Part shown: in pieces, positions 43,803-54,173 of the stretch
Numbering within the stretch: position 1 is the stretch's first letter
Layout of the letters: each line of letters opens with the position of its first letter
Origin: Pseudovibrio japonicus
GTDB taxonomy: Bacteria > Pseudomonadota > Alphaproteobacteria > Rhizobiales > Stappiaceae
Length of the DNA stretch: 64,000 nt
Assembly (NCBI RefSeq): GCF_014651595.1
Contig: NZ_BMXE01000010.1
Span: 1 to 64,000, forward strand
Reading direction: 5' to 3'
Program-made: the position numbers and the translations under genes
The notes under the pieces: model-generated
Databases searched by the model: none
What the model was told of the DNA's origin: nothing
What the model saw: the letters and a program-made list of their open reading frames with translations, nothing else

Positions 43803-44660
43803 TCAGGGCGCGCCGCCAATGCGTGTGACCGCAGCGGCGCCGCATTTGTTGCCGTTTTGCAGGCAGGTCTGGATATCCGCACCGCGGAGCCAGGAACTTA
43901 AGAAACCAGCATTGAAGGCATCACCTGCGCCAGTGGTATCAACGACCTTGACTGGCTCTGCAGCAACGGTGAGCTCACCGTTTGCAGTCAGAGCGGTTGC
44001 ACCTGCCTTGCCCTTTTTTACGATTGTGAGTGTGGGGCAGTTGGCTGGGTCTGTCAGGTAGCCCAGATGTTCGGCTTCCATCTCATTGGGGAGGAACAGG
44101 TCAACCTGAGCGATCAGGTTTTGCACCCTGTCGTCGAGAAGGCAGTTTTCATCCCAGGAGCAATCCAGAGAGATTGTCATGCCTGCTGCTTTGGCGATCT
44201 CCAGCAGTTCGGGAAGTTCCTGCAGTGTTGCCAGTTCGCCGATGTGGAGGTGTCTGGCGTTTGACGTGCTGAACGTTTGTAGCATGTCTCGTGGCACGGC
44301 GGTGCCATTGCGCTTGGTGAGGAAGGCGCGGTCGTCCCTGCAGCCAATAACGGCTGTGACCTGCGCGCCGTTGGAGTGATCAAACGGAGACAGGCTTAGA
44401 TCAACGCCGCTGCGCTGCATCTTTGTAAGGATTGCTGAGCCAAACGGGCCGCCCGGCATGGAGGCCAGCAGCATGGTTTTGTGGCCCAGTGCAGAAAGGT
44501 TGGCGGCGGTTATGAAACCGCCGCCTCCGGGTTCAACTGCCAGATCCTTGGCGTAGGTTTCCTCGCCCAGTCTTGGTAGTTCGGTGAGCCCTGTAAAGAT
44601 AAGGTCGCAATAAACCCGTCCCGCACAGACGATTGCCCCATCGGTTTCTTTTAAGCTCAC
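43803..44660 (-). CDS. PfkB-family carbohydrate kinase
   Basis: 285 aa ribokinase-like kinase. N-terminal motif EPGGGGFITAANLSALGHKT and the C-terminal DTTGAGDAFNAGF (residues 241-253) with catalytic Asp247. It phosphorylates a sugar or nucleoside; the substrate is presumably what the operon delivers. GTG start overlaps the stop of the UgpC-type gene (GTGA). Last gene of the 50407-43803 operon. Convergent with the aminotransferase gene. Confidence 0.9.
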   Translation of the reverse strand: MSLKETDGAIVCAGRVYCDLIFTGLTELPRLGEETYAKDLAVEPGGGGFITAANLSALGHKTMLLASMPGGPFGSAILTKMQRSGVDLSLSPFDHSNGAQVTAVIGCRDDRAFLTKRNGTAVPRDMLQTFSTSNARHLHIGELATLQELPELLEIAKAAGMTISLDCSWDENCLLDDRVQNLIAQVDLFLPNEMEAEHLGYLTDPANCPTLTIVKKGKAGATALTANGELTVAAEPVKVVDTTGAGDAFNAGFLSSWLRGADIQTCLQNGNKCGAAAVTRIGGAP

Positions 44661-51779: not shown

Positions 51780-54173
51780 ATGCCGCTTTCAGATCCAGAA
51801 CGTATTGCCGCGCATGAACAACATGTGCGGATGGTGGAGCTATGGCGTGCGCTACAGCTGCTGAAGTCAACAGTCTCCTTTATGAATACGGGTGCTCATC
51901 CCGATGATGAGATTTCTGAAATGCTGGCGGCGATTGGACTTCGCGATGGTATCGCGCTGTCTTATGCCTGTGCTAACCGTGGTGAGGGCGGACAGAATTC
52001 TATCGGGACCGAGACCACCGAGAATCTTGGTGTTGTGCGAACCGCCGAGATGGAAAAAGCCTGTGATGTTCTGAACATGCGCCTTTATTGGCTTTCAGAG
52101 CATCCAGAGGACAGTATCTTTGATTTCGGGTTGTCAAAGAGCGGTGTTGAAACGCTTGGCAAGTGGGGGCATCAGCGAACGCTAAAGCGGTTTGTGGAGA
52201 TTATCCGTCAGGAGCGTCCGGATATCATCAGCCCGACCTTCCTAGATATTCCCGGTCAGCATGGTCACCACCGAGCCATGACACAAGCGGCGTTTGAGGT
52301 GATGAAGGCGGCGGCTGATCCTGATTTTCCTGAGGTTGATCTGCCGTGCTGGACGGTCAAAAAACTCTATCTGCCTGCGTGGTCAGGTGCGGGCGGCGCA
52401 TATGATGACGAGGTTCCTCCGCCACCTGCTACACTGGAGTTTGACGGGAACGGTGAGGAGGAAATCACCGGCTGGAGTTGGGCGCAGATTGGGGAGCAGT
52501 CGCGTACCTTCCATCGGTCGCAAGGTATGGGGCAGTGGCGGCCTTATGGACAGGAAAATGTCTGGCCGCTGCATCTGGCAGAAAGCGTGGTTGGTACACA
52601 GGAGCAGTCGCTTTCTGATAATCTGCCGCGTGACCTTTCCGAACTTGCAAAGTTTGCTGGGGCTCCGACGCTGGCTGGGTTGCTCGATAAAGCCCATGAC
52701 CATTGCATGGATGCCATAGAGGCGTTTCCTAACCGTGACAGGATTGGAGCTGCTGCGGCGCGGGCGTTGAAGTTGGTTCGCAAGGCTCGTATGGACTGTC
52801 CAGAGGTCGCGCGGGATGAGGTCGTGCACCGGCTGGAACGTAAGGAGTTACAGCTCTCGAAAGTGCTTGAGCTGGCGGAGGGTATCGTTGCCTCGCTGCG
52901 GCTTTCTCAGGATCAGTTGCGGCATGGGGAGAGCGCTGGGGTTGTGTGGGAATGCAACCGTGATGGTGTGGGCTATGAGCTTGATCTTCCCAAGGGCTGG
53001 CATTTGAAGGATGGGTGCGTCGAAGTTGGCGCTGGTGCTGCTGTCAGTGATCCATACCCTGCCGTTTACAAACCTGATGCAGTGCAAGCGCCCTGTGCGC
53101 GGGTCCAGTTCAGATCCCACGGGGTGGATGTTGAAACGCGGTTGCCGTTTGAGGTTGAGCCCGTGGTTTTGCCTGCACATGTTGCAGAGCTGGATGATAC
53201 GGATTTTGTGTTGAACAAGGCGCTGGAAGGGCGCGCCCTCCAGATTCCCGTGAATGGGGGTGGAGCAGGACTGGAGCTGGTAGCACCGCACGGATGGCAG
53301 GTTCATCTGGAAGGTGGGGTGTTCCATCTTACGCTTCCCGATAACATTGCAGAGGGGCTCTATGAGTTGCCCCTGCTGCAAAGCGGGGAGCAAGCTTACG
53401 GTGTCCACGTGGTGCCTTATACGCATGTAAGCCAGCGCGTGCGGGTGACGTCTGCGGTCGTTCGGGTGTGTGTGCTTGCTGCGAGGCTTGATGCCAAGCG
53501 CGTTGGCTATGTTGGCAGCGGCAATGACCGTGTGGGCAAGTGGCTGGGTGATATTGGTGTGGATCTGATTGAGCTGTCCGTGGGCGAACTGAGCGTGCAG
53601 CGTCTGCAAGAGCTTGATTGTCTCGTGGTTGGTATCTTCGCGTTCCGCAGCAGGCAGGACCTGCATGATATGATTGATGACATACATGCGTGGGTGAAAG
53701 CTGGCGGGCGTTTGATCACGCTGTATCATCGCCCTTGGGATCGCTGGGATGCAGACAAGCTACCTCTCGCACGGCTTGAGATCGGATCACCGAGTTTGCG
53801 CTGGCGAGTGACTGATGAGACGGCGCAGGTGCGCTACCTGAATGCGCTGCATCCCTTACTCAACCAGCCCAATGAGATCGGTGAGAGCGACTGGGGCAAC
53901 TGGCATAAAGAGCGTGGGCTTTATTTTGCCAAGAGCTGGGATGATGCCTATGAGCCTCTCTTGGAGATGGCCGATCCGGATGAGGCGCCGCACCAGGGTA
54001 TATTACTGGCTGGTCAGTTTGGGCAGGGGCAGCACATCCACACATCACTTATCCTGCATCACCAGATGGAAAAGCTTGTGCCCGGTGCCTTCCGGCTGAT
54101 GGCCAACCTTGTTTCTTGTGGTTCAGGAGAGGGGGATGCCGTTCGCAAAGAGAAAGCGTTCGAGACGAAATAA
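51780..54173 (+). CDS. PIG-L (LmbE-like) deacetylase with a large C-terminal extension
   Basis: 797 aa, much longer than plain LmbE proteins (about 230-300 aa). Residues about 30-270 are the PIG-L zinc deacetylase: AHPDDE at 39-44 (His40, Asp42, Asp43) and HGHH at 161-164. Residues about 375-550 look like beta-sandwich linker domains (IPVNGGGAGLEL), and about 570-780 resemble a ThuA/glutamine-amidotransferase-like Rossmann domain (DCLVVGIFAFRSRQDLHDM, GGRLITLYHR). Expected to remove N-acetyl from an amino sugar or conjugate. No signal peptide, so cytoplasmic. Start ATG follows GAGGGGATGAG; co-transcribed with the ROK gene. Confidence 0.87.
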   Translation: MPLSDPERIAAHEQHVRMVELWRALQLLKSTVSFMNTGAHPDDEISEMLAAIGLRDGIALSYACANRGEGGQNSIGTETTENLGVVRTAEMEKACDVLNMRLYWLSEHPEDSIFDFGLSKSGVETLGKWGHQRTLKRFVEIIRQERPDIISPTFLDIPGQHGHHRAMTQAAFEVMKAAADPDFPEVDLPCWTVKKLYLPAWSGAGGAYDDEVPPPPATLEFDGNGEEEITGWSWAQIGEQSRTFHRSQGMGQWRPYGQENVWPLHLAESVVGTQEQSLSDNLPRDLSELAKFAGAPTLAGLLDKAHDHCMDAIEAFPNRDRIGAAAARALKLVRKARMDCPEVARDEVVHRLERKELQLSKVLELAEGIVASLRLSQDQLRHGESAGVVWECNRDGVGYELDLPKGWHLKDGCVEVGAGAAVSDPYPAVYKPDAVQAPCARVQFRSHGVDVETRLPFEVEPVVLPAHVAELDDTDFVLNKALEGRALQIPVNGGGAGLELVAPHGWQVHLEGGVFHLTLPDNIAEGLYELPLLQSGEQAYGVHVVPYTHVSQRVRVTSAVVRVCVLAARLDAKRVGYVGSGNDRVGKWLGDIGVDLIELSVGELSVQRLQELDCLVVGIFAFRSRQDLHDMIDDIHAWVKAGGRLITLYHRPWDRWDADKLPLARLEIGSPSLRWRVTDETAQVRYLNALHPLLNQPNEIGESDWGNWHKERGLYFAKSWDDAYEPLLEMADPDEAPHQGILLAGQFGQGQHIHTSLILHHQMEKLVPGAFRLMANLVSCGSGEGDAVRKEKAFETK

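What the first reader, a model, noticed from the sequence alone, without database searches (positions are those of the whole stretch)
43803..54173. Sugar ABC operon combining a fumarate-type lyase, a PfkB kinase and a long PIG-L deacetylase
Seen: one operon (binding protein, MalF, MalG, ArgH-like lyase, UgpC-type ATPase, PfkB kinase), divergent from ROK regulator plus 797-aa PIG-L protein. Known: PIG-L enzymes remove N-acetyl from GlcNAc-type conjugates (for example GlcNAc-malate in bacillithiol synthesis); ArgH-superfamily enzymes eliminate fumarate from N-succinyl-type compounds, and a relative cleaves EDDS. Inference: the cluster imports and dismantles a conjugate of an N-acetylated (amino) sugar with a succinyl or malyl group (or an aspartyl adduct): deacetylation, fumarate elimination, then sugar phosphorylation. 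I know of no described pathway with this set.
Basis: partly seen in the sequence, partly recalled or inferred. Interest (0 to 1): 0.78.

Follow-up and report, generated by a model that had tools for sequence, protein, structure and literature searches.

The report
Likely bacillithiol-eating gene cluster
A cluster of eight genes looks like a kit for importing and taking apart glucosamine-malate compounds such as bacillithiol, a common bacterial antioxidant whose breakdown appears to be undescribed.

Summary
The gene set is real: six packed genes (binding protein, MalF, MalG, ArgH-like lyase, UgpC-type ATPase, PfkB kinase) diverging from a ROK regulator and a 797-aa PIG-L protein. It is a conserved cassette: all 21 plasmids found with the long PIG-L carry the lyase 4.4-4.7 kb away; of 80 lyase loci from several phyla, 39 have a PIG-L within 8 kb and 13 others an amidohydrolase. 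The lyase forms its own subfamily, apart from ArgH, and the genome has another argH. Some variant operons swap the kinase for ROK or NagK-like proteins, or add glucosamine-6-phosphate deaminase, which points to glucosamine. In two acidobacterial sets the lyase lies near bshC, the last bacillithiol gene (at least 16 of 96 genomes within 2 kb; 11 of 34 at 8-12 kb). Best reading: uptake of bacillithiol or a related glucosaminyl-malate; PIG-L cuts the amide; the lyase eliminates fumarate from glucosamine-malate; kinase and deaminase finish. This genome and its 23 same-order lyase carriers show no bshC, so they would scavenge. No reaction was tested; substrate and order of steps are inferred.

The parts
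43803..44660 (-). PfkB-family sugar kinase (proposed glucosamine kinase), 285 aa
   Evidence: PF00294 2.8e-39; below the cut-off of every named PfkB equivalog listed; nearest solved chains are named ribokinase or ydjH sugar kinase
44657..45715 (-). UgpC/MalK-type ABC ATPase, about 352 aa (start codon uncertain; the open frame runs to 45907)
   Evidence: PF00005, TOBE_2, OB_MalK; UgpC subfamily NF008653 499 bits, cut-off 432
45720..47207 (-). ArgH-superfamily lyase of a distinct subfamily, 495 aa from the ATG
   Evidence: PF00206 7.1e-40; EDxFF and HNxPFxDxND in place of the ArgH EDIH and LPxxYxxDxQED; tree; model pLDDT 92.7, best PDB folds EDDS lyase and ArgH
47204..48082 (-). ABC permease, MalG type
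   Evidence: PF00528, UgpE/MalG models below cut-off
48084..48977 (-). ABC permease, MalF type
   Evidence: PF00528, UgpA/MalF models below cut-off
49154..50407 (-). extracellular solute-binding protein of a CUT1-type importer
   Evidence: PF13416/PF01547; closest solved chain acarbose/maltose-binding GacH
50408..50570 (.). divergent intergenic region (probable ROK operator/promoters; not analysed)
   Evidence: 50380-50620 read
50571..51770 (+). ROK-family regulator with N-terminal winged helix, 399 aa
   Evidence: PF00480 1.4e-48 and weak MarR-type HTH; NagC/Mlc models below cut-off
51780..54173 (+). long PIG-L protein, 797 aa: N-terminal PIG-L hydrolase, then uncharacterised helical and beta-rich regions
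   Evidence: PF02585 3.6e-17, residues 37-174; best NCBIfam model mycothiol conjugate amidase Mca, 27.9 bits against a cut-off of 277; AHPDDE and H161/H164 invariant in 30 homologues; model pLDDT 90.5 matches diacetylchitobiose deacetylase and MshB, lower down BshB

Best explanation
A catabolic/scavenging operon for glucosaminyl-malate compounds, most likely bacillithiol (Cys-GlcN-malate), its disulfide or S-conjugates, or GlcNAc-malate. (1) The CUT1-type ABC importer (49154-50407, 47204-48977, 44657-45715) brings the conjugate in (transporter shown by family; ligand inferred). (2) The PIG-L protein hydrolyses the amide on the glucosamine nitrogen, releasing cysteine (Mca/Bca-like) or acetate (BshB-like) and GlcN-malate (fold and conserved site residues shown; reaction inferred). 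(3) The ArgH-superfamily lyase eliminates fumarate from the malyl glycoside, freeing glucosamine (superfamily signature shown; reaction inferred and new). (4) The PfkB kinase makes glucosamine-6-phosphate (inferred), which NagB, or in this genome perhaps the NagB-II-like protein encoded before a nagA-like gene on contig C7, turns into fructose-6-phosphate. (5) The ROK protein senses a sugar product (inferred). In many relatives a DMT/EamA transporter gene follows PIG-L, perhaps to expel the cysteine part; it is absent here.
For: Cassette: 21 of 21 plasmids with the long PIG-L; of 80 genome-contig loci, PIG-L within 8 kb in 39 and Amidohydro_2 in 14, 52 with either, against 0 PIG-L in 17 control regions (20 fetched, 3 overlapping lyase loci dropped). 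The PIG-L-lyase pair occurs with three kinds of uptake genes: CUT1 ABC, SBP_bac_6-type ABC in Bacilli, TonB receptor + SSF symporter in Acidobacteria. Three of five Deinococcus plasmids repeat the set with a short PIG-L and a PfkB-family kinase. Amino sugar: NagB over its cut-off in Paroceanicella, nagB after PIG-L in Loktanella and after pfkB in L060, NagB-II-like SIS protein in Roseomonas; kinase replaced by ROK or NagK_SO3507-like BadF proteins; own genome has a NagB-II-like gene before a nagA-like one. Bacillithiol: in the class of G341, 100 of 193 genomes have the lyase, 96 of the 100 a bshC, and at least 16 have both on one contig within 2 kb, all 16 convergent (positions not listed for 7 of the 96). 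In a second set, 11 of 34 have bshC 8-12 kb away on the same strand; of 10 mapped, 8 read bshC-mutL-(ROK)-TonB-SSF-PIG-L-lyase, one has an APC-type transporter instead of SSF, and G703 reads bshC-TonB-SSF-PIG-L-lyase-mutL. The lyase is apart from ArgH. BSH is Cys-GlcN-malate and a BshB2-type PIG-L protein is a shown conjugate amidase (PMC4360819, passages); BSH is widespread (PMC6282198, abstract and passages).
Against: No activity, ligand or growth datum exists. The bshC neighbourhoods were seen only in Acidobacteriota and may descend from as few as two insertion events. In most genomes checked bshC is on another contig or far away: on one contig but over 300 kb apart in 5 of 34 and over 3 Mb apart in G668 and G471. 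Of 14 mapped bshC-adjacent loci only 5 have PIG-L directly ahead of the lyase. PIG-L is missing from 41 of 80 genome loci and neither PIG-L nor amidohydrolase is within 8 kb in 28 (several on short contigs); 3 of 80 (L121, L131, L163) show none of the partner families. Six of 27 lyase plasmids lack PIG-L, among them Shinella and Bosea with a LacI-type regulator and no kinase; two of five Deinococcus plasmids lack PIG-L and kinase; genus g82 has the lyase alone. NagB-type genes are near in a minority: 3 SIS and 0 NagB of 80, 4 SIS and 3 NagB of 42 further loci. The nearest folds are C-N lyases, but the proposed reaction cuts C-O. The lyase scores over the ArgH model cut-off. The long PIG-L is only distantly similar to Mca/BshB. 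bshC in carriers of other phyla is no evidence by itself, being common there. The control regions all come from Bacilli, Acidobacteria and Deinococcota.
Confidence: 0.68

Rival explanations
1. Same pathway logic, but another amino-sugar conjugate: for example an N-(2-succinyl)/aspartyl adduct of glucosamine or a glycosyl-aspartate, from which the lyase eliminates fumarate by C-N cleavage. Bacillithiol is not the natural substrate.
For: EDDS lyase and ArgH, both C-N lyases, are the nearest folds and profiles; amino-sugar partners NagB/NagB-II/NagK-like fit.
Against: Two different bshC-linked arrangements in Acidobacteriota; the PIG-L partner would have no clear role on an adduct without an N-acyl group.
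Confidence: 0.14
2. The cluster acts in thiol detoxification or turnover (conjugate amidase plus clearing of GlcN-malate) rather than in nutrition; the importer retrieves leaked thiol.
For: Mca is the best, weak model for the long PIG-L of the window, L106 and L113; bshC neighbours in thiol producers; DMT gene next to PIG-L in many relatives, as expected for expelling cysteine conjugates.
Against: None of 24 same-order lyase genomes, this one included, has bshC (two of them are under 80% complete), and it is also absent from the 4 named alphaproteobacteria tested, so they should have no bacillithiol of their own; several PIG-L relatives in Bacilli and Acidobacteria begin with a hydrophobic, signal-like N-terminus (by eye).
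Confidence: 0.1
3. The lyase cleaves an aminopolycarboxylate (EDDS-like) or a succinylated thiol (2SL-like); the sugar genes are incidental.
For: EDDS lyase is the top Foldseek hit and top profile hit; 2SL is a recently described fumarate-releasing lyase (PMC9706529, abstract).
Against: PIG-L, sugar kinase, NagB-type deaminase and CUT1 importer recur with the lyase in several phyla; EDDS lyase lacks the EDxFF stretch (alignment).
Confidence: 0.05
4. It is simply a second argininosuccinate lyase parked in a sugar operon.
For: Databases call it argH (for example); it scores 301 bits on TIGR00838, cut-off 279.5.
Against: Another ArgH in the genome; the 7 ArgH rows (assigned by motif) and the subfamily fall on opposite sides of the tree; 32 positions differ consistently, including the loop KGLPLTYSKDMQED, here HNTPFTDMND.
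Confidence: 0.03

Closest known systems
Bacillithiol biosynthesis and conjugate turnover (BshA, BshB1/BshB2, BshC, Bca)
   Same: PIG-L-type amide hydrolase acting on a glucosaminyl-malate; bshC lies near the lyase in part of the Acidobacteriota
   Different: Adds an importer, a fumarate-type lyase, a sugar kinase and in variants a deaminase; the window genome shows no bshC. No step past GlcN-malate turned up in the papers searched
Argininosuccinate lyase (ArgH) and EDDS lyase
   Same: Fold, SSIMPQKRNP signature loop, fumarate-type elimination expected
   Different: Separate from ArgH in the tree; EDxFF and HNxPFxDxND stretches in place of ArgH residues; sugar-operon context
S-(2-succino) lyase pathway (yxe type, PMC9706529)
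   Same: A fumarate-releasing lyase combined with an N-deacylase in a salvage pathway
   Different: Thiol (C-S) substrate; the abstract names no amino-sugar kinase, NagB or PIG-L
N-acetylglucosamine / chitobiose catabolic operons (NagA, NagB, NagK, CUT1 ABC, ROK regulator; recalled)
   Same: Importer type, ROK control, glucosamine-6-phosphate end point
   Different: Deacylation by PIG-L rather than NagA, and a lyase expected to remove a dicarboxylate

Membership tests
Argininosuccinate lyase (ArgH) | Superfamily fold and SSxMPxKxNP-type signature | tested here: met
   PF00206 7.1e-40; SSIMPQKRNP invariant in 38 relatives; Foldseek
Argininosuccinate lyase (ArgH) | Score over the curated argH model | tested here: met
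   TIGR00838 301 bits, cut-off 279.5; the model does not separate the subfamily
Argininosuccinate lyase (ArgH) | Groups with ArgH and keeps its EDIH and LPxxYxxDxQED stretches | tested here: not met
   Tree; motifs; 32 differing positions
EDDS lyase | Close kinship to the solved enzyme, and aminopolycarboxylate activity | tested here: inconclusive
   About 27% identity over the fold; EDDS lyase was not put into the tree; activity not testable
PIG-L/LmbE superfamily | AHPDDE and second histidine motif | tested here: met
   PF02585; A39-H40-P41-D42-D43-E44 and H161, G162, H164 invariant in 30 sequences; role as zinc site is recalled
Mca/BshB-type conjugate amidase or deacetylase | Scores over a curated model of the family | tested here: not met
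   Mca 27.9 bits against 277; BshB2 22.8 against 195
Bacillithiol biosynthesis pathway | bshC in the genome | tested here: not met
   0 of 24 same-order lyase genomes including this one
Bacillithiol / glucosaminyl-malate catabolic cluster (proposed) | Lyase, amide hydrolase and importer conserved together | tested here: met
   For the window type; more loosely across phyla:
Bacillithiol / glucosaminyl-malate catabolic cluster (proposed) | Genomic link of the lyase to a bsh gene | tested here: met
   Only in relatives (Acidobacteriota):
Bacillithiol / glucosaminyl-malate catabolic cluster (proposed) | Lyase releases fumarate and glucosamine from GlcN-malate | not testable with these tools
   Needs an enzyme assay

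The most novel reading that the evidence does not exclude
This is a complete and widespread catabolic route for bacillithiol, in which a new class of fumarate-releasing lyase opens the malyl O-glycoside of glucosamine by beta-elimination instead of glycosidase hydrolysis; carried on plasmids and chromosomes, it lets thiol non-producers eat the thiol of Bacilli, Acidobacteria, Deinococcus and others.
Probability: 0.55. Interest if true: 0.85.

Novelty: new variant of a known kind. Interest (0 to 1): 0.74.

Why it matters
[quoted passage not shown] capped listings, open-access papers only) showed no route that breaks it down past the conjugate-amidase step. If right, it adds an enzyme class (elimination of a sugar from malate), would explain many proteins annotated argH in sugar operons, and gives a directly testable sulfur, nitrogen and carbon cycling step between thiol producers and scavengers.

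Tried and rejected
Considered and rejected: a duplicated ArgH (tree, motifs, second argH); EDDS/aminopolycarboxylate breakdown (context); Amadori fructosyl-aspartate breakdown (gives no role to PIG-L or NagB); mycothiol (its inositol cannot leave as fumarate; recalled chemistry); N-glycan GlcNAc-Asn (elimination would not free the sugar; recalled chemistry). The 'cysteine dioxygenase' beside the Roseinatronobacter cluster would have suited the cysteine story, but no Pfam or NCBIfam model supports it at the thresholds used, so it is not used. bshC presence by itself was not counted as evidence because it follows phylum. The title of L150, Acidimicrobiia, was first read as a second phylum with bshC next to the lyase; the class search around it returned genomes that also came up in the search around the acidobacterium G302, so it is treated as the same lineage. 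Three of 20 control regions overlapped lyase loci and were dropped.
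Full report
What is there. The eight genes are confirmed at the stated coordinates with the stated families. The six minus-strand genes are tightly packed (stop/start overlaps at malG-lyase and ATPase-pfkB); ROK and the 797-aa PIG-L gene run divergently, 9 bp apart. The genome (4.96 Mb, 24 contigs) has six Lyase_1 hits; one is the window lyase, one, on contig C2, is ArgH by motif and tree, two others look like FumC and PurB by reading, and two were not identified. 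It has one PIG-L only, this one, no bshC, no PF01182 NagB, but a NagB-II-like SIS protein (347 bits, below the 430-bit cut-off) encoded directly before a NagA-like protein (NagA by reading).

It is a patchily spread, conserved cassette. Of 297 genomes sampled from the order, 58 match the lyase at E<=1e-60; 24 of them (this one included) at 55% identity or more, the rest at 37% or less; the 11 other same-family genomes listed have no match. Of 23 relatives fetched, 21 have enough flank; 13 of these carry the long PIG-L, 4 carry the ABC genes without PIG-L but with an MBL-fold protein and a ROK kinase-like protein (three of them also a SIS protein), and 4 of one genus (g82) show only the lyase. 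On plasmids, 39 records match the lyase at E<=1e-60, 27 of them at 50% identity or more; 21 of the 27 have the long PIG-L, 4.4-4.7 kb away each time; no plasmid was found with the long PIG-L (E<=1e-30) without the lyase.

Variants tell the sugar. Loktanella: a ROK protein in place of PfkB and nagB right after PIG-L. Paroceanicella: a ROK protein plus NagB, over the TIGR00502 cut-off. Roseomonas: a ROK kinase-like protein plus a SIS protein whose best model is NagB-II, 313 bits, below its cut-off of 430. L060: NagB 58% identical to that of Paroceanicella directly after pfkB. Bacilli: a BadF-family protein whose only listed NCBIfam hit is N-acetylglucosamine kinase NagK_SO3507, below cut-off. 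One acidobacterium: a GlmS-like SIS protein. Three kinase families and three deaminase-like families in the same place fit glucosamine to glucosamine-6-phosphate to fructose-6-phosphate. In numbers the deaminases are a minority: of 80 genome-contig loci, PfkB 17, BadF 11, SIS 3, NagB 0; of 42 further loci, PfkB 17, SIS 4, NagB 3. Shinella and Bosea plasmids have neither kinase nor PIG-L and a LacI-type regulator.

The lyase is a subfamily of its own. In a tree of 106 rows (chosen from 159; near-duplicates and other superfamily members left out) the 7 ArgH rows form one clade with full support, and the 89 rows with the HNxP motif lie on the other side, needing two changes of which one is forced; the method was the quick one and several branches are long. 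The alphaproteobacterial and the acidobacterial lyases group together with 86% SH-aLRT, under the 95 mark. Thirty-two positions separate the subfamily from ArgH, among them the loop that reads HNxPFxDxND. The AlphaFold model (pLDDT 92.7) matches EDDS lyase and ArgH best.

PIG-L often goes with it through changes of transporter. Among the 80 loci, PIG-L lies within 8 kb in 39 (in L125 only a fragment), Amidohydro_2 in 14, either in 52, neither in 28. Of 20 control regions, all around bshC in Bacilli, Acidobacteria and Deinococcota genomes, 3 overlapped lyase loci and were dropped; none of the 17 left has a PIG-L or a CUT1 binding protein by the same search. The pair occurs with a CUT1 ABC importer, with an SBP_bac_6-type ABC importer in Paenibacillus and Peribacillus, and with TonB receptor plus SSF symporter in Acidobacteria. 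Among five Deinococcus plasmids, D. deserti has ROK-lyase-SBP-MalF-MalG-short PIG-L-PfkB, D. wulumuqiensis and D. actinosclerus have a long and a short PIG-L in the operon, and D. aetherius and D. psychrotolerans have lyase and importer only. The long PIG-L model (pLDDT 90.5) has the PIG-L fold at the N-terminus; apart from a low-TM match to a modular GH5 glucanase, the top Foldseek hits are diacetylchitobiose deacetylase and MshB, with BshB lower.

The link to bacillithiol. In the class of G341, 100 of 193 genomes have the lyase at E<=1e-75 and 177 of 193 have bshC; 96 of the 100 have both. In 16 the two lie on one contig less than 2 kb apart (coordinates of the matches), always convergent; the bshC list was cut off, leaving 7 of the 96 without a listed position, and many assemblies are fragmented, so this is a lower bound. 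In G668 and G471 the two are over 3 Mb apart. Fourteen of the 16 were mapped: all 14 confirm the pair, 5 with PIG-L directly ahead of the lyase, others with TonB or ROK genes or nothing recognised. In a second set of 34 lyase genomes (the 33 lower-identity genomes plus G311), all 34 have bshC and 11 have it 8-12 kb from the lyase on the same strand; five have it over 300 kb away on the same contig, the rest on another contig. Ten of the 11 were mapped: 8 read bshC-mutL-(ROK)-TonB-SSF-PIG-L-lyase (ROK detected in 7 of the 8), one has an APC-type transporter instead of SSF, and in G703 the run sits between bshC and mutL. MutL and APC are my reading of the sequences; bshC is by PF10079. By position alone one would expect roughly 0.2% (2 kb) to 0.6% (12 kb) of genomes (my arithmetic on a 4.5 Mb genome), but the cases are related and may reflect two founding events.

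Reading. Bacillithiol is Cys-GlcN-malate, made by BshA, BshB and BshC; a BshB2-type PIG-L enzyme is a shown conjugate amidase (PMC4360819, passages), and the efflux pumps after it were described as unidentified (PMC5815605, passages). After amide cleavage GlcN-malate remains. A fumarase/ArgH-type elimination would release fumarate and glucosamine, which kinase and deaminase finish. bshC was not detected in any of the 24 same-order carriers (two of them under 80% complete), nor in the 4 named alphaproteobacterial and 4 Chloroflexota-type carriers tested, so these would scavenge thiol made by others. Shown: gene content, conservation, subfamily status, linkage. Inferred: every reaction, the ligand, the order.

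Literature. Eight searches in the open-access library listed no paper on bacillithiol catabolism past the amidase step or on this gene set. The listings were capped (up to 20 of as many as 2,691 matching papers), and I saw titles and abstract starts only, plus passages of PMC4360819, PMC5815605 and PMC6282198 and the outline and abstract of PMC9706529. Most subscription papers are not in that library.

Noticed in passing
window 40597-43745: Glutamine-synthetase-like gene (GlnA and gamma-glutamylputrescine synthetase models, below cut-off) divergent from a class III aminotransferase next to the cluster: looks like a polyamine-catabolism pair, unrelated to the finding.
   Followed up: partly
window 54226-57929: TetR-like regulator, membrane-fusion-like protein, ABC ATPase and ABC-2-like permease after the PIG-L gene: looks like an efflux system (by reading the translations).
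   Followed up: no
L074 8911-17590 and L076 7983-17600: Deinococcus operons with two different PIG-L genes (707 and 742 aa with NPCBM-associated and CBM9 domains, and about 280 aa) around one importer, suggesting two amide-hydrolysis steps.
   Followed up: partly
L075 5409-10458: Haloarcula plasmid: an ArgH-like lyase of unclear kinship beside genes annotated as succinate dehydrogenase/fumarate reductase iron-sulfur subunit and FAD-binding protein; possibly another fumarate-linked pathway.
   Followed up: no
L063-L066: One genus (g82) keeps a 59-60% identical lyase with none of the partner genes recognised within about 9 kb.
   Followed up: partly
L150 and L107: Records titled Acidimicrobiia carry lyases that group with Vicinamibacterales, and the class search around L150 returns genomes shared with the search around an acidobacterium: the NCBI titles are probably wrong.
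   Followed up: partly
L037 336-989: Protein annotated 'cysteine dioxygenase family' next to the DMT and PIG-L genes, but no Pfam or NCBIfam model matched it.
   Followed up: yes
L045 12735-16119: Terrarubrum plasmid: nadA, L-aspartate oxidase and nadC follow the lyase-ATPase genes after one hypothetical gene; significance unknown.
   Followed up: no
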